A DNA stretch of 64,000 nucleotides from an uncultured Opitutales bacterium (GTDB lineage: Bacteria; Verrucomicrobiota; Verrucomicrobiia; Opitutales; Seribacteraceae). The stretch covers positions 189,001-253,000 of the forward strand of contig CALSTX010000004.1 in NCBI GenBank assembly GCA_943789375.1, given 5' to 3'. The notes beneath the pieces are model-generated. The model had not been told where the DNA came from, did no database searches, and saw nothing but the letters and a program-made list of their open reading frames with translations. Of this stretch, positions 32,619-47,320 are shown in pieces. Numbering within the stretch: the first letter of the stretch is position 1; the number at the start of each line of letters is the position of its first letter. Made by a program: the position numbers and the translations under genes.

Positions 32619-32621
32619 TTT

Positions 32622-32649
32622 CAACAACTTCGAGTTGTTGGATTTTTTC
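32622..32649 (+). terminator. Rho-independent terminator after rpsU
   Basis: CAACAACT (32622-32629) pairs perfectly with AGTTGTTG (32633-32640) around a TCG loop and is followed by GATTTTTTCT. It separates rpsU from the cyclase/TIR cassette. Confidence 0.85.
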
Positions 32650-32687
32650 TCGTAAGTCTTTCATTTGTTCTCTTAACTAATTGGACC

Positions 32688-34646
32688 ATGTCCCAATTAG
32701 CCAAGAGACAAACTCTCAGCCTTCGCCAGCAATGGCGTGTTTTCGATAAGCAGAACTCTTCGTCCAAGGCATACTTGGACCTATGCGGCAGGATGATTCA
32801 AGTTGGAGAGTTCCTGCTTGCCCACGATGTGGCCAAAGATGGTCTTGGAAAGCACAAGAACGACCGTTTGCTTTCACAGAAAGCAGCCCATGCCCTTTGC
32901 AAAGCTGGTTCTCCTATGATGGCTACCAAGATACTTGAGGGGTTGGTCACTTCAGGCGTGAGAGACGTAGAAACTCAAAGTTTACTTGCAAGTGCTTACA
33001 AAGATCTTTGTGAGTACTCAAGTAATCCGGAAAATAAGTCACACTATGCAGAGCTTGCTATTTATCGGTACAAAGAAGCCTTTGTTGCTCAGTTAGAAAA
33101 AGCTGAAAAAGGAAGCGATAACCTGGAAAGCCAGTATTACCCCTGCATTAATGTAGCCTTCATGCATTTTGTTTCGCACAACCTGCCAAAAGCGCACAAA
33201 TACGCAAACTTTGCCCGGGAAATTTGCCGTACTCTTCGGCAACGAGGAGATGGGTCTTACTGGGTTCTTGCAACCGAGGCTGAGTCCAGTCTTCTTTTGG
33301 GAGAAATTAATGAAGCCATCACTGCCTATTCCACCGCAGTGAATCTTGAGGATGCTCAACCCTCCCACATAGCCAGTACCAGAAAGCAGGCATTGCAAAT
33401 CTCTTCCCTCTACAGTGACACTTCGATTCGTGATCAAGTAAGCGAAGCCTTTCCAGTTTTAGGAATTGTAGCATGCTCTGGGCATGTGATTGATAATGCA
33501 GAGGGTAACCGTCGATTTCCTCCTGAAGCTGAAAAGATAGCCAAGCAAAGAATCGAAGAGAAGCTGGAGCAAATGGGGGCAAACTGCGGCTACAGTTCCG
33601 CAGCCTGTGGTACTGATATTCTTTTCCTTGAGACCATGATTGAACGGGGAGGGGAGACTCATGTGTTCCTTCCCTTTGCCAAAGACGAGTTCATAGAAAC
33701 CAGTGTAAGAAGAGCGGGTGGCGATTGGGTTTCAAGGTTGGAAAATGTTTTGGATCACGCAACCTCTGTACATTATGTTACCCACGAAGGGTACTATGGA
33801 GATGATTCTTTGTTTTCCTTCTGTAATCAGGTCATGATTGGCTTTGCGGCGATGCGTGGTCGTGGACTTGATGAAGACCCTCAACTTTTAGTCTTTTGGG
33901 ATGGAAAGCCTGGGTCGGTTGGCGGCACCGGAGAATTAGTAAAGTCGTGGCAATCTGTTTTTAACCAACCTGAGGTTATCGATGCCAATGAAGTGCTAAC
34001 CGACCTGCCTGATATAAAGGCTGGCAGAGTTGTAGAATTGCCGGCTACCTCAGATTACTCCCAAGACGGATTCGGAGATGCTCTTCAACCCATTCGGTCG
34101 GTAAAAACGATGATTTTTGCAGATGCTGCAGGTTTCAGCCAAATAACAGAAGATTTAACCAGTCAATTTGTGGAAGCTTTTCATGGGGGAGTTGCTCAAA
34201 TGATCGATAAACTTCCCCAAAAGCCATCCTTTGTAAATACCTGGGGGGATAGTTTTTTCGCTGTTTTTGAGGATTTAGAAAGTGCACTGAAGCTGGCACT
34301 TGGTATGAGGGATTATTTTACTGACGGCAAGTGGTCTGAATGGTTGCCAAACGGGAATATGGATGTACGAATCTCCATGCACGCGGGACCGGCTTATGAA
34401 GAATTTGACCCGATCCTCAAGAAAAGAAACTTTTTTGGCAGCCATGTAAACCAAGCTGCCCGCATCGAGCCCATTGTACTGCCTGGCTCTGTGTTTGTTT
34501 CTGAGACAGTAGCTGCCCTGATTTCTTTTGGTTACGAAGAATATGATTTTGAGTATGCCGGCAATATTGATTTGGCCAAGAATTACGGAACCTATCCAGT
34601 CTATATCCTTCAGCGAAAAGGTTATTCGGATAAATTAATTTCATAA
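32688..34646 (+). CDS. TPR / Rossmann-like / class III nucleotide cyclase protein
   Basis: Cytosolic 652-residue multidomain protein. Residues about 20-240 form a TPR-like helical array resembling the TRAFs-binding/DUF4071 family (ESQYYPCINVAFMHF). Residues about 255-405 form a Rossmann-like domain with GIVACSGHVID, RFPPEAE, AACGTDILFLETM and HVFLPFAKDEFIETSV, similar in style to SLOG- or TIR-type sensor folds. Residues 470-645 are a class III cyclase homology domain: metal Asp479 (MIFADAAGFSQ) and Asp521 (TWGDSFFAVF), transition-state Asn588 and Arg592 (VNQAARIE). The two base-selecting positions are Asn517 (usually Lys) and Asn581 (usually Asp or Thr), so the product may not be cAMP. Seven bases before the TIR gene. 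Confidence 0.85.
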   Translation: MSQLAKRQTLSLRQQWRVFDKQNSSSKAYLDLCGRMIQVGEFLLAHDVAKDGLGKHKNDRLLSQKAAHALCKAGSPMMATKILEGLVTSGVRDVETQSLLASAYKDLCEYSSNPENKSHYAELAIYRYKEAFVAQLEKAEKGSDNLESQYYPCINVAFMHFVSHNLPKAHKYANFAREICRTLRQRGDGSYWVLATEAESSLLLGEINEAITAYSTAVNLEDAQPSHIASTRKQALQISSLYSDTSIRDQVSEAFPVLGIVACSGHVIDNAEGNRRFPPEAEKIAKQRIEEKLEQMGANCGYSSAACGTDILFLETMIERGGETHVFLPFAKDEFIETSVRRAGGDWVSRLENVLDHATSVHYVTHEGYYGDDSLFSFCNQVMIGFAAMRGRGLDEDPQLLVFWDGKPGSVGGTGELVKSWQSVFNQPEVIDANEVLTDLPDIKAGRVVELPATSDYSQDGFGDALQPIRSVKTMIFADAAGFSQITEDLTSQFVEAFHGGVAQMIDKLPQKPSFVNTWGDSFFAVFEDLESALKLALGMRDYFTDGKWSEWLPNGNMDVRISMHAGPAYEEFDPILKKRNFFGSHVNQAARIEPIVLPGSVFVSETVAALISFGYEEYDFEYAGNIDLAKNYGTYPVYILQRKGYSDKLIS

Positions 34647-34652
34647 GTTTTT

Positions 34653-36137
34653 ATGGATTCCTTTCATTCTGCCCATAGCTCGGCTGATGTACCTTCACCC
34701 TTTGAGTCTTATTCCGGTGATGGCCCTTATTCCTTTATTAGCTATGCCCACGCAGATAAGGTTAAAGTGTACAAAACAATTCGTGAATTTAAGACCAAAG
34801 GTATAAATGTTTGGTATGATGAAGGAATACCACCGGCTGGCGAGTGGGTAGATGAACTAGCCCAAGCCATTAAGAAATCATCAGCTTTTGTTGTCTTTGT
34901 TTCCCATCGCTCCGCTGATTCAAGGTATGTTCGTATGGAAGTGCAATATGCATTGAGTGAGCAAAAAGAGATCCTCACTATTTTCCTTGAAGACACGAAA
35001 TTACCTCCCGGGCTTTCCTTGTGCCTCCAGCAGTTTCAATCCATCTCTGTGTCGGAGAAAAATTGGATGGAAAGTGCGTGTAAAGCCTTGCTTCAAAGAC
35101 AGGATGCTGTTGCATCTGATGGTTCCATTGGAAGCTCCCAGCCAGAACTTGTCGAAGAGGAGGAGATTGATCATGGCTTGGAGCTCTGGTCGTTTTGGAA
35201 AAAGGCCCAGGCCGTGCAAAATAAGAGATTTGATCGACGCGGTAACCTTCCGCCTCGTTCTACTTTGCCTATGCACGAAAGTGTTTCAGAAAATGTTGTA
35301 CCAGATTTAAATTCCACCAGCCTTCAAGAGTCACATCCGATTCCTTCACCTCAGGATTTAGACAAAACAAGACATCCATTTGCGGTGGATGTTTCTATAA
35401 CGCCAGGACAGGCAGAAGAGAAACAAGAATTTCGTGAACACCATATTAATGATTATGCTGGGATTTTTAAGTGGATTCCTCCCGGCAAAATTACCATTTT
35501 GGTACCCTATTCCGATGAGCGTAGACTTGTTCATGTAAGAGATGGGTTCTGGCTTGGTGAGTTCGTGATCACCCAGTCGGTCTATTCAAAACTTATGGGA
35601 TCAAATCCTAGTTTTACCGAATTGGGCTTAGGAGAAAATTCAGAAAATTATCCTGTAAATAATATTTCCTGGCTCGATGCGGTTTCTTTTTGCCGTGCTC
35701 TTACCATGCTCGCTCAAAATGAAGGACAACTGCCTGCTAAACATGAGTACAGGTTACCGACCGAAGTGGAGTGGGAATACGCTTGCCGGGCTGGATCCCA
35801 AGCCGACTTTTATTTTGGGGATGACCCAACCGTTTTACATAATCATGGATGGTTTCGTGGAAACAGTCGGAAGAAAATGCACCCCGTTGGTCTAAAGTCT
35901 CCAAATCCCTGGGGTCTATTTGATCTCCATGGAAATGTCAGGGAGTGGGTGGGGAATTCTTTTGTAAATACTCTACTCAATGACAGCGAACAAGATGAAT
36001 TTAGGATCAGCCGAGGCGGAGCTTACATGAAGCCAGCGATCGAATGTAAATCGTCTTCAAGATCGACGAATTCTTTACACCATCGTTTTCGTAATCTTGG
36101 GTTCCGGGTAGCTTTGGCTCCAACCGCCAAGGTTTAA
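34653..36137 (+). CDS. TIR domain plus FGE/sulfatase-modifying-factor-like protein
   Basis: Residues about 24-150 are a TIR domain: YSFISYAHADKVKVYKTIRE, INVWYDEGIPPAGEW, AFVVFVSHRSADSRYVRMEV. Glu96 aligns with the catalytic Glu of NAD-cleaving TIR proteins. A linker rich in Ser/Pro/acidic residues spans about 150-260. Residues about 265-490 form an FGE-sulfatase (C-type-lectin-like) domain: WLGEFVITQSVYSKLMGSNP, YRLPTEVEWEYACRAG, GLFDLHGNVREWVGNS, SRGGAY and the GFRVALAP end. The copper/formylglycine-forming cysteines are not evident, so a binding role is more likely than catalysis. There is no cyclic-nucleotide-binding domain and no membrane segment. Co-transcribed with the cyclase. Confidence 0.88.
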   Translation: MDSFHSAHSSADVPSPFESYSGDGPYSFISYAHADKVKVYKTIREFKTKGINVWYDEGIPPAGEWVDELAQAIKKSSAFVVFVSHRSADSRYVRMEVQYALSEQKEILTIFLEDTKLPPGLSLCLQQFQSISVSEKNWMESACKALLQRQDAVASDGSIGSSQPELVEEEEIDHGLELWSFWKKAQAVQNKRFDRRGNLPPRSTLPMHESVSENVVPDLNSTSLQESHPIPSPQDLDKTRHPFAVDVSITPGQAEEKQEFREHHINDYAGIFKWIPPGKITILVPYSDERRLVHVRDGFWLGEFVITQSVYSKLMGSNPSFTELGLGENSENYPVNNISWLDAVSFCRALTMLAQNEGQLPAKHEYRLPTEVEWEYACRAGSQADFYFGDDPTVLHNHGWFRGNSRKKMHPVGLKSPNPWGLFDLHGNVREWVGNSFVNTLLNDSEQDEFRISRGGAYMKPAIECKSSSRSTNSLHHRFRNLGFRVALAPTAKV

Positions 36138-44804: not shown

Positions 44805-45611
44805 TTACATTTTTCCTTCCAGCTTTTCTCGTATAGATTTCCGTACTTTTTCTCCGGTGAAATCAAGAAAGGTGACGATGACTAACATGCAGAGTAAAAC
44901 CAGGGAGAATTTATTCCAGCTATCCGCGGACTCAGCATAGAGTTTAAGGTGAAGCCCAATGCCCCCGGCTCCCACATAGCCAATGATACTGGCTGATCTC
45001 ACATTATATTCAAGCATCCATAAACAATGGCTCCAAATGACCGGTCTTAGGTTGGGCCATAAACCATATTGAAAGGCCTGCCAACGGCTTGAGCCTAAGG
45101 ACTGTAGGGCTTTTTGGGCTTTTAAATCAGCTGATTCAAAGGCTTCACTGAAAAATTTGGCAAGGTAACCGGTGCTGTAAAAAGTAAGAGCGATGACGCC
45201 GGCAAGGGAATTGGACCCGACTAGCACGACAGCCAATATCGCCCAGAGCAGGCTGGGGATGGTACGAATAATATTTAAGAGCATTCGCGTAATAAAGACC
45301 AACCATCTCGGGCTGATGGTCCGAGCGGCTCCTAAAGATAGGAAGAGCGAAAAAATAGATGCAAGAAAGGTGGAGATACCCGCAATTTGAACAGTCTCCC
45401 AAAGCCCAGTCATAGTCTGGCCTAGTATGGACCAGTCAGGGGGGAAGAATTGGTCGGTGAAGCGAAGGAAGTTTCCCCAGTAATCCAAGTCGCGACCTGA
45501 TCCCTCCAAAGCGGGGAGGGAGCTGAAAGCAAGCAATAAAAAGAGAACGAAAGTAACGCCCGGAAGATCGAGTCGGTTATACCAAGGCATGTTTTTCATT
45601 TCAGGGTTCAT
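44805..45611 (-). CDS. phnE: Phosphonate/phosphite-type ABC transporter permease PhnE
   Basis: Inner-membrane permease with about six membrane segments. The cytoplasmic coupling loop typical of binding-protein-dependent permeases is visible (EAFESADLKAQKALQSLGSS, then RWQAFQYGLWPNLRPVIWSH), and SIIGYVGAGGIGLHL is the PhnE-family hallmark. Length is 268 residues. Its ATG overlaps the phnC stop by four bases (ATGA). No phosphonate-degrading genes accompany it, so the substrate could be phosphonate, phosphite, or phosphate. Confidence 0.9.
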   Translation of the reverse strand: MNPEMKNMPWYNRLDLPGVTFVLFLLLAFSSLPALEGSGRDLDYWGNFLRFTDQFFPPDWSILGQTMTGLWETVQIAGISTFLASIFSLFLSLGAARTISPRWLVFITRMLLNIIRTIPSLLWAILAVVLVGSNSLAGVIALTFYSTGYLAKFFSEAFESADLKAQKALQSLGSSRWQAFQYGLWPNLRPVIWSHCLWMLEYNVRSASIIGYVGAGGIGLHLKLYAESADSWNKFSLVLLCMLVIVTFLDFTGEKVRKSIREKLEGKM

Positions 45612-46291
45612 ACCTTATTTGGGGTATTCATCAAAACATTCCATTTTTCTGGCTTTTGGGGATCGGCCTGGATGATTTTATCCGCGAATTGATCGACTTG
45701 ATCGAGGTCGTGCAGAGAGCATATAACGCAAGCGTCTTGGGCTTGTGCATATTGTTTGAGCATGCCTAAGGTAATCTCGGCCCACTTTCCATCCAAGCTA
45801 GCCACTGGCTCATCTGCCAATAAGATCGATGGTTGTGCCAAAAGGGTACGGGCAATCGCAAGCCTCTGTCTTTCCCCGCGTGATAGCGTAGATGTCCATT
45901 GGTGTAGTTTTTTTTGGAGTCCAAGTTTTAGGAGTAAAGAAATGGCTTTGCCTTTTTCTTCCTCCGGGAAACCAAGTAGTGTTTGAAAAGAAGAGTGGCG
46001 ATAGAGGCATCCGCTGAGTACATTTTTTAAAGTGGTTGAACCTTCTGCAAGCTGTAAATCTTGATGAATCATACCAATCGGCAGGGGGCTTGTCGTATGA
46101 GTAATTGTTTGCCCCCCAGCCAAAGGGATATCTCCTGCTATTCCCCGCAATAGTGTTGTTTTTCCTGAGCCTGAGCTCCCCACCAGAGCAATGAATTCAC
46201 CCCTGTTTACAGAAAAAGAAAGGTCTTGGACCAGCCAGCGTTCACCGATGCGAAGACTGAGGTCTTTACCCTCGATCAAGCATCTTTCCAT
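45608..46291 (-). CDS. phnC: Phosphonate-type ABC transporter ATP-binding protein PhnC
   Basis: Cytoplasmic ATPase of the importer. Walker A is GSSGSGKTTLLRG, the Q-loop is GMIHQDLQLAEGST, the signature is TLSRGERQRLAIARTLL (Arg instead of Gly at its third position), Walker B is ILLADEPVASLD, and the switch His is in CSLHDLDQV. Length is about 227 residues from the ATG at 46291; a TTG three codons earlier is possible. It lies between phnD and phnE in one operon. Confidence 0.9.
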   Translation of the reverse strand: MERCLIEGKDLSLRIGERWLVQDLSFSVNRGEFIALVGSSGSGKTTLLRGIAGDIPLAGGQTITHTTSPLPIGMIHQDLQLAEGSTTLKNVLSGCLYRHSSFQTLLGFPEEEKGKAISLLLKLGLQKKLHQWTSTLSRGERQRLAIARTLLAQPSILLADEPVASLDGKWAEITLGMLKQYAQAQDACVICSLHDLDQVDQFADKIIQADPQKPEKWNVLMNTPNKV

Positions 46292-46312
46292 CCCTTTCAA
46301 AAGTACTAAAAG

Positions 46313-47248
46313 TTATGGTTTAAGGGTCTTTTGCAGGCGAAGTGCTTCCCGGGTAACCTGGAGGTGTTCATCTTCATCAACTACGATAAGTTCACCGTTA
46401 AATATCCTGTCTCGGAGCTCAGGGTTTTCTTGATTCATTGCAAGGAGTGCTTTCTTTAAAATTCTACGGTCATTGGGGGACATGGTTGAGCGAATGCAGA
46501 GAGTATGGGCTGGAACCGGGCCTTGTTCCTGAATTATGCGGAGTTTCGCTTTTTGGGCATCGTCCAAGTATTTGTTATTTCCTTTAAATACATAATCACT
46601 GACCGCAGCTGCCTCCACTTCGCCCGAAAGTACTTTTTCCACCGCCGAAACATAGCCCGTGCCGTACAAGGTAAGGGAAAAATAGTCGGTGAGAGATTTT
46701 TGGGTTCCAATTAAGCCCTTCTTCATCATATCCCATGTGGGAATAAGGTAGCCGGATGTACTGGAGCGGCTGGCAAAGGCAACCGGCTTTCCTTGTAACT
46801 CGAACACGGATTTATAAGTTTTTTCTTTCTTAGTGAGCCAGACACTTTGGTAATTTGGCTTACCATTCTTAAGGTGTACAAGCAATACACTCGCTGTTTC
46901 TTGCCCAACATTGCGGGCTGCATCTGTTGAACTGAGATAGCCTAGGTCAAGGGTCCCATTTCGAAAGGATTCGACGACAATGCTGGAGTCGGTAGGGATT
47001 AATACTTCAATCGGACGATTCAATTTCTGAGATAAGTAAGCCTGTAGTTCCTGTTTTTCGATCAGCATACTGGCTGGTTGCTTGTTCGCCTTTAGAGCAA
47101 TTACAAGTTTTTTTAGACTGAGCTCGGTGCTATTTTCCTCACTCGTTATCTCTTTCTCTGGGGCACTGCAGGACCAGATGCACAGGCTGTTCAGAGTAAA
47201 CAGGACATGGGTGGAAATTAAGACTTTTTTGGATATAAAACTTTTCAT
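46313..47248 (-). CDS. phnD: Phosphonate/phosphate-type ABC transporter substrate-binding lipoprotein PhnD
   Basis: Periplasmic receptor of the PhnD/PtxB family (type II periplasmic-binding fold). The N-terminal signal ends in a lipobox LCIWSCS, so it is membrane-anchored. Family motifs are LDLGYLSSTDAA, the anion-binding RSSTSGYLIP segment and EVEAAAVSDYVF. The ATG at 47248 (MKSFISKKVLISTHVLF) is preferred to an open-frame start at 47278. It is 311 residues and the first gene of phnD-phnC-phnE. Which oxyanion it binds cannot be read from sequence. Confidence 0.88.
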   Translation of the reverse strand: MKSFISKKVLISTHVLFTLNSLCIWSCSAPEKEITSEENSTELSLKKLVIALKANKQPASMLIEKQELQAYLSQKLNRPIEVLIPTDSSIVVESFRNGTLDLGYLSSTDAARNVGQETASVLLVHLKNGKPNYQSVWLTKKEKTYKSVFELQGKPVAFASRSSTSGYLIPTWDMMKKGLIGTQKSLTDYFSLTLYGTGYVSAVEKVLSGEVEAAAVSDYVFKGNNKYLDDAQKAKLRIIQEQGPVPAHTLCIRSTMSPNDRRILKKALLAMNQENPELRDRIFNGELIVVDEDEHLQVTREALRLQKTLKP

Positions 47249-47320
47249 TAAAAACTGCTTATTGATACTCAGTCTCAATAAGGATTACTTTGGAATTGGT
47301 CAATGTATGAATGAAAACTT

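What the first reader, a model, noticed from the sequence alone, without database searches (positions are those of the whole stretch)
32688..36137. Two-gene cyclase plus TIR/FGE cassette: candidate cyclic-nucleotide signalling or anti-phage system
Seen: a TPR/Rossmann-like/class III cyclase protein, seven bases upstream of a TIR protein with the candidate NADase Glu96 and a C-terminal FGE-like lectin-fold domain. Known: Pycsar pairs a class III pyrimidine nucleotide cyclase with a TIR or membrane effector, and TIR NADases act in several abortive-infection systems. Inference: this pair may be a stand-alone signalling or defence module in which the TPR/Rossmann part senses a trigger, the cyclase makes a signal, and TIR depletes NAD. 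It differs from described Pycsar in having no cyclic-nucleotide-binding domain on the TIR protein and in carrying an FGE-like recognition domain. The cassette sits alone between rpsU and lysS, with a terminator before it.
Basis: partly seen in the sequence, partly recalled or inferred. Interest (0 to 1): 0.72.

Follow-up and report, generated by a model that had tools for sequence, protein, structure and literature searches.

The report
Cyclase–TIR signalling pair in marine Opitutales
Two neighbouring genes in a marine verrucomicrobial bacterium encode a nucleotide cyclase and an NAD-cleaving-type TIR protein; the pair is a fixed part of the chromosome in this bacterial family, and because similar cyclases sit next to TIR genes in several other phyla, it probably marks an undescribed kind of two-protein alarm circuit.

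Summary
32688-34646 encodes TPR-S + SLOG-like Rossmann domain + class III cyclase; 34653-36137 encodes TIR (Glu96) + FGE/C-type-lectin domain. Metal and transition-state residues of the cyclase and Glu96 are conserved. The operon lies between a terminator after rpsU and one before lysS.

It is not a mobile defence cassette in this lineage. It sits at the same dnaE-rpsU-X-lysS site throughout its family: the cyclase is found in 40 of 42 genomes and TIR-FGE beside it in 36 of the 38 where the site is assembled, under strong purifying selection.

The link between the two functions is nevertheless real and wider than the family. Among 42 distant homologues (Cyanobacteria, Proteobacteria, Acidobacteria, Actinobacteria, Bdellovibrionota, Verrucomicrobia), 12 have a TIR gene within two genes (0.3 expected) and two more have DUF4062, a TIR-like NADase. 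The TIR partners carry varied C-terminal domains; no cyclic-nucleotide-binding domain was detected in them. The cyclase protein carries a SLOG-like domain, the type that receives TIR products in Thoeris.

Pairing is well supported; direction, product and defence role are untested.

The parts
32620..32650 (+). rpsU terminator-like hairpin with T run, upstream boundary of the operon
   Evidence: terminator scan, 10-bp stem then TTTTTT; the sequence itself. No sigma-70-like promoter was found in the gap
32688..34646 (+). TPR-S / SLOG-like / class III cyclase protein, 652 aa
   Evidence: Pfam TPR-S and Guanylate_cyc; AlphaFold model with mean pLDDT 83; orthologues in 40 of 42 family genomes
32720..33447 (+). 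TPR-S helical region (about residues 12-253)
   Evidence: PF20308 at residues 57-159; helices 12-253 in the model
33462..34001 (+). SLOG-like Rossmann domain (about residues 259-438); motifs CSGHVID, SAACGTDILFLE, LPF, GGTGE
   Evidence: model secondary structure; Foldseek DprA-like viral protein, TM 0.78 over the target, E 7e-5; hhalign to the N-terminal domain of a SLATT_1-type protein, E 6.6e-16
34095..34616 (+). class III cyclase catalytic domain (about residues 470-643): metal Asp479 and Asp521, Asn588, Arg592; base-specifying positions Asn517 and Asn581
   Evidence: PF00211; Foldseek to Rv1900c, CyaC and others; residue alignments
34653..36137 (+). TIR-FGE protein, 494 aa
   Evidence: Pfam TIR_2 and FGE-sulfatase; adjacent orthologue in 36 family genomes
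34728..35087 (+). TIR domain (residues ~26-145) with invariant Glu96
   Evidence: Foldseek best hits SARM1 TIR, AbTir and plant TIRs; Glu96 invariant
35463..36122 (+). FGE / C-type-lectin-fold domain (residues ~271-490), more conserved than the TIR; one of the two FGE copper cysteine positions is Lys460
   Evidence: PF03781; best PDB relative TvpA; 70% against 63% mean pairwise identity
36110..36147 (+). terminator-like hairpin and T run at the end of the operon, before lysS

Best explanation
This is a two-protein nucleotide-signalling module of immune type that has become a fixed chromosomal locus in this Opitutales family. Most likely mechanism: the TIR-FGE protein is the trigger-sensing enzyme, whose FGE/C-type-lectin domain binds a conserved ligand or partner and lets TIR domains assemble and process NAD+ into an ADP-ribose-type product (inferred). 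The SLOG-like domain of the TPR-S/cyclase protein receives that product, as SLOG does in Thoeris ThsA (inferred), and switches on the class III cyclase, which makes a cyclic mononucleotide of unknown base that reaches receptors encoded elsewhere (inferred). Shown here: the domain content, conservation of catalytic residues, the fixed operon, and the recurrent pairing of this cyclase architecture with TIR or TIR-like genes across phyla.
For: Pairing: TIR within two genes of 12 of 42 distant homologues, 0.25-0.35 expected from the TIR content of the same genomes. Two further loci have DUF4062, reported to be a TIR-like NADase (PMC13174449). The label needs at least 14 changes on the cyclase tree, so the pairings are not one inherited event. 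Direction: the TIR partners differ in their C-terminal modules (WD40 in L124, L131, L135, L138; TPR in L145, L148; SIR2 in L127, L139; DUF4062 in L130; FGE here), and no cNMP-binding domain was detected in them. The constant partner carries the SLOG-like domain, and SLOG is the receptor of TIR-made 3'cADPR in Thoeris (PMC11204291). The cyclase is kept, with intact catalytic residues, in two genomes that have lost TIR-FGE (G001 with a deletion scar, G028); both have other TIR genes. Active sites: metal Asps and Arg592 are conserved in all 42 distant homologues aligned, and TIR Glu96 is invariant in the family.
Against: No enzymatic activity, ligand or phenotype has been measured. The SLOG assignment is remote: no Pfam SLOG or PDB sequence match, no profile match to DprA, and pocket residues were not compared with ThsA. 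The fixed location between housekeeping genes fits a constitutive signalling role as well as immunity. In G001 the TIR-FGE deletion could be an artefact of single-cell amplification. 28 of the 42 distant loci have no TIR or DUF4062 neighbour, and some of the pairs are divergent rather than co-directional.
Confidence: 0.42

Rival explanations
1. Pycsar-like direction: TPR-S/SLOG senses a trigger, the cyclase makes a cyclic mononucleotide, and this activates TIR-FGE to deplete NAD+, giving growth arrest or abortive infection.
For: Class III cyclase next to a TIR with intact Glu96; gene order and translational coupling; Pycsar works this way with a CNBD-TIR receptor (PMC11224242). The base-specifying positions Asn517 and Asn581 differ from canonical adenylate or guanylate cyclases.
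Against: No cNMP-binding domain on TIR-FGE or detected on TIR partners elsewhere. PADLOC has no match to the cyclase. The cyclase is retained without TIR-FGE in G001 and G028. Asn at the Lys position is near-invariant in the whole family, so it is a family trait rather than a sign of pyrimidine specificity.
Confidence: 0.25
2. A constitutive physiological signalling pair, not immunity: for example stress, envelope or developmental cNMP signalling in marine Opitutales, with TIR used as a regulated NADase or scaffold.
For: Present in essentially every family member at one fixed site with low dN/dS; the window is a housekeeping neighbourhood; no phage homologue.
Against: The partner domains (TIR, TPR-S, SLOG, FGE, DUF4062, STAND, SIR2) are those of conflict systems (PMC7159879). 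A Tolypothrix plasmid carries a truncated cyclase plus a TIR gene.
Confidence: 0.27
3. The two genes are functionally unrelated neighbours kept together by synteny in a slowly rearranging family.
For: The whole dnaE-lysS-ccsA block is syntenic in the family, so adjacency inside the family alone proves little.
Against: Translationally coupled overlaps in some genomes and repeated cyclase-TIR adjacency in unrelated genomes far above expectation.
Confidence: 0.06

Closest known systems
Thoeris (ThsB TIR + SIR2-SLOG ThsA)
   Same: TIR enzyme with a recognition part, beside a partner protein carrying a SLOG-like domain; the TIR also matches ThsB_TIR (PF08937) above its cut-off
   Different: The partner's output domain is a class III cyclase with TPR-S instead of SIR2 or TM-macro; the locus is fixed in the family, not an accessory island
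Pycsar (PycC + PycTIR)
   Same: Class III cyclase next to a TIR protein
   Different: No CNBD on the TIR protein, extra TPR-S and SLOG-like domains on the cyclase, an FGE domain on the TIR, and no PADLOC match to the cyclase
FGS (FGE-fold) effectors of MoxR-vWA ternary conflict systems and DGR targets (PMC7159879)
   Same: FGE/C-type-lectin domain at the C-terminus behind another conflict domain, with TvpA as the nearest solved relative
   Different: No vWA, MoxR or DGR was seen at the locus, and the FGE domain is more conserved than the TIR, so it is not diversified
Swarozyc (DUF4062 TIR-like NADase; PMC13174449)
   Same: DUF4062 proteins sit beside the same cyclase architecture in L061/L121 and L134, suggesting interchangeable NADase partners
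   Different: Swarozyc as described acts without a cyclase and is activated directly by the phage portal
Mycobacterial Rv1900c-type class III cyclases
   Same: Nearest solved cyclase domain by fold (1ybt)
   Different: Different domain partners; the substrate of the present enzyme is unknown

Membership tests
Pycsar | class III cyclase catalytic motifs (two metal Asp, transition-state Asn and Arg) | tested here: met
   Asp479, Asp521, Asn588 and Arg592 conserved in all family orthologues
Pycsar | effector with a cyclic-nucleotide-binding domain | tested here: not met
   P0002 has only TIR and FGE; none detected in 12 TIR partners elsewhere
Pycsar | cUMP or cCMP product | not testable with these tools
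   base-specifying positions are Asn/Asn, which does not decide the base
Pycsar | match to a curated defence-system model | tested here: not met
   no PADLOC family for P0001 at E <= 1
Thoeris | TIR protein of ThsB type | tested here: inconclusive
   PF08937 36.6 bits against a cut-off of 21.2, but TIR_2 scores higher (76.3) and PADLOC's best match is SAVED-TIR
Thoeris | ThsA with SIR2-SLOG or TM-macro architecture | tested here: not met
   partner is TPR-S + SLOG-like + cyclase
Thoeris | SLOG-type receptor domain on the partner | tested here: inconclusive
   fold match to a DprA-like protein and homology to the N-terminal domain of a SLATT_1-type protein; no Pfam SLOG match, no PDB sequence match, pocket not compared
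Formylglycine-generating enzyme (catalytic) | two copper-binding cysteines | tested here: not met
   by the human FGE pattern (known positions, aligned by eye) the first is Lys460, near-invariant; Cys465 is kept
DGR-diversified FGE/TvpA-type protein | hypervariable C-terminal region | tested here: not met
   the C-terminal stretch DEFRISRGG...FRNLGFR is among the most conserved in the protein
Mobile anti-phage cassette | patchy presence or variable insertion site | tested here: not met
   same site in the whole family
TPR-S conflict-system proteins (PF20308) | TPR-S domain above the Pfam cut-off | tested here: met
   44.7 bits against 27.6; also in distant homologues L061-L064 and L144

The most novel reading that the evidence does not exclude
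A widespread, undescribed two-messenger relay: diverse TIR or TIR-like sensors make an ADP-ribose-type signal that a SLOG-bearing class III cyclase converts into a cyclic mononucleotide, joining Thoeris-type and cyclic-mononucleotide signalling in one circuit, and domesticated as a core locus in marine Opitutales.
Probability: 0.33. Interest if true: 0.88.

Novelty: new variant of a known kind. Interest (0 to 1): 0.62.

Why it matters
Two known bacterial immune strategies, TIR/SLOG (Thoeris) and class III cyclase/TIR (Pycsar), use parts that are combined here in one conserved locus and recur as neighbours across phyla. If the relay is real, an NAD-derived signal would be translated into a cyclic nucleotide, giving amplification and allowing many receptors. 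The family-wide fixation also gives a testable case of an immune-type module becoming a core gene pair, with two natural TIR-FGE losses as controls.

Tried and rejected
Mobile defence cassette: rejected for this family. DGR-diversified recognition domain: rejected, because the FGE domain is more conserved than the TIR. Active formylglycine-generating enzyme: unlikely, one copper Cys is replaced. Direct profile match of the Rossmann domain to DprA, PDB sequences or Pfam SLOG families: not found; the assignment rests on fold and on a SLATT_1-linked domain. An ABC transporter with a cNMP-binding domain overlaps the cyclase in G067 and was tested as a conserved receptor in the window's genome: only the cNMP domain aligns, so the lead was dropped. 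LSDAT_prok (PF18171) search: no match in 38 relatives. The protein upstream of the Caballeronia plasmid homologue is not a TIR. The TIR-FGE structure was too weak overall (mean pLDDT 64) to judge the FGE surface. Pyrimidine specificity inferred from Asn517/Asn581: considered and dropped, because Asn at 517 is near-invariant across the whole cyclase group and, from memory, Rv1900c, the nearest fold, carries Asn at the same position and makes cAMP. One search was a mistaken call on a protein alignment.
Full report
WHAT IS THERE. Two + strand genes lie between rpsU and lysS. Gene 1 (32688-34646, 652 aa) has TPR-S (PF20308) and a class III cyclase domain (PF00211) by Pfam. The AlphaFold model (mean pLDDT 83, pTM 0.82) adds a central alpha/beta Rossmann domain, residues about 259-438. 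Gene 2 (34653-36137, 494 aa) has TIR_2 and FGE-sulfatase. Its TIR domain is closest by fold to SARM1 and other NADase-type TIRs. The genes are 6 bases apart; in relatives the gap is -4 to 18 bases, so they are probably co-translated. A terminator-like hairpin follows rpsU (32620-32642) and another overlaps the TIR-FGE stop. No sigma-70-like promoter was found in the short gap, so expression may depend on read-through or another promoter type; this was not tested.

CATALYTIC RESIDUES. In all family orthologues the cyclase keeps both metal Asps (479, 521), Asn588 and Arg592. The base-specifying positions are Asn517 (Lys in adenylate cyclases) and Asn581 (Asp in adenylate cyclases). The NTWGD motif with Asn517 is near-invariant in 42 distant homologues, so it is a trait of the whole group; position 588 is mostly Asn, Ser or Thr there. 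The nearest solved cyclase domain by fold is Rv1900c, so the base cannot be predicted. TIR Glu96 is invariant in 27 orthologues. The FGE domain has Lys at one of the two copper-cysteine positions, so it is unlikely to be an active FGE; its C-terminal stretch is nearly invariant, which suggests a fixed ligand.

FAMILY DISTRIBUTION. The cyclase is found in 40 of 42 family genomes; in the other two the genome is 60% complete (G020) or the contig appears to end inside TIR-FGE (G027). TIR-FGE is adjacent in 36 of the 38 genomes where the site is assembled. In the 15 family neighbourhoods examined the site is dnaE-rpsU-cyclase-(TIR-FGE)-lysS. Genome titles place the family in marine Opitutales/Opitutia, Verrucomicrobiota. 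dN/dS between G000 and G026 is about 0.025 for the cyclase and 0.05 for TIR-FGE. Two genomes keep the cyclase and lack TIR-FGE: G028, where the cyclase is followed directly by lysS, and G001, where a scar joins the first codons (PFESYLGEGL) to the last (YRLRNLGFRVALA). G001 is a single-cell genome, so an amplification artefact is possible.

BEYOND THE FAMILY. One scan of genome contigs returned homologues of the same architecture (29-36% identity) in Cyanobacteria, several proteobacterial groups, Acidobacteria, Actinobacteria, Bdellovibrionota and other Verrucomicrobia. Of the 42 loci outside the family, 12 have a TIR gene within two genes: L124, L127, L130, L131, L135, L138, L139, L142, L143, L145, L146 and L148. 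From the TIR content of the same 42 genomes, 0.25-0.35 such loci are expected. About ten of the 42 loci form one alphaproteobacterial clade of small genomes without TIRs, and several contigs are short, so the fraction is probably a lower bound. Two more loci (L121, L134) have DUF4062 next door, reported in 2026 to be a TIR-like NADase (PMC13174449). The TIR/DUF4062 label needs at least 14 changes on the cyclase tree (several forks are weak), and a Tolypothrix plasmid carries a truncated cyclase followed by a TIR gene. The pairing is therefore recurrent, not one ancestral accident.

WHO TALKS TO WHOM. The TIR partners differ in their C-terminal parts: WD40 propellers, TPR, SIR2, DUF4062, FGE. 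No cyclic-nucleotide-binding domain was detected on them; for L131 only the best 25 of 44 Pfam families were listed, so that case is less complete. The constant partner carries the Rossmann domain. Its fold matches a phage DprA-like protein (TM 0.78 over the target, E 7e-5), and its profile matches the N-terminal domain of a SLATT_1-type protein (hhalign E 6.6e-16); comparison with the TIR-FGE profile is negative. SLATT_1 is named for association with SLOG domains. Direct sequence matches to SLOG or DprA families were not found, so the assignment is good on fold and weak on sequence. In Thoeris, SLOG is the receptor for TIR-made 3'cADPR (PMC11204291). The simplest reading is that the TIR protein senses and signals, and the cyclase protein receives and amplifies. 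Retention of the cyclase without TIR-FGE in two genomes that still have other TIR genes fits that direction, but it also fits a separate role for the cyclase.

SHOWN AND INFERRED. Shown: domain content, conserved catalytic residues, fixed operon, cross-phylum pairing. Inferred: NADase activity, cyclase activity and product, SLOG ligand, direction, trigger, and any role against phages.

MEMBERSHIP. Not Pycsar (no CNBD effector). Not Thoeris as defined (no SIR2-SLOG or TM-macro ThsA), though it may work like one. Not a DGR target or an active FGE. It belongs to the broad set of TPR-S/SLOG/TIR conflict-type proteins.

NOVELTY. I found no description of a TPR-S/SLOG/cyclase plus TIR module in the papers searched. 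Two older surveys by the group that described such domains were not in the library, so earlier mention of the cyclase architecture cannot be excluded.

Noticed in passing
L178:2847-4898 (G000 contig C6): The same genome has a GYF-TIR-FGE protein of 684 aa; in G001 a GYF-TIR gene and an FGE gene lie side by side as two ORFs (L179). TIR plus FGE is a repeated theme in this family.
   Followed up: partly
L177:2635-4944 (G000 contig C6) and similar matches in many family genomes: A second TIR protein (TIR-TPR, 770 aa) appears conserved through the family and resembles the TIR-TPR partners of cyclases in L145 and L148.
   Followed up: partly
L061:10101-14522 and L134:3314-4357: DUF4062 proteins (one DUF4062-NACHT-TPR, 8 bp downstream) lie next to the same cyclase architecture; DUF4062 was reported in 2026 as a TIR-like NADase.
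   Followed up: partly
L064:261-3302 and L064:3256-5541: In G067 a RyR-TPR-S-cyclase-like gene overlaps an ABC transporter with a cNMP-binding domain, a possible direct receptor of the cyclase product in that lineage.
   Followed up: partly
L139:47-4656: SIR2-TIR plus nSTAND1 genes directly upstream of a cyclase homologue: a three-gene conflict-type cluster in Casimicrobiaceae.
   Followed up: no
L127, L129, L132: Three homologues lie in metagenome bins whose titles read Bordetella parapertussis; the bins look environmental and may be mislabelled.
   Followed up: no
window 32619-32687: The cyclase start lies about 45 bases after the rpsU terminator stem with no recognisable sigma-70 promoter; in relatives a T-rich ATTTTT..CTCGT stretch after rpsU is often similar.
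   Followed up: no
window 44805-47278: Phosphonate-type ABC transporter genes (permease, ATPase, binding protein) on the - strand.
   Followed up: no
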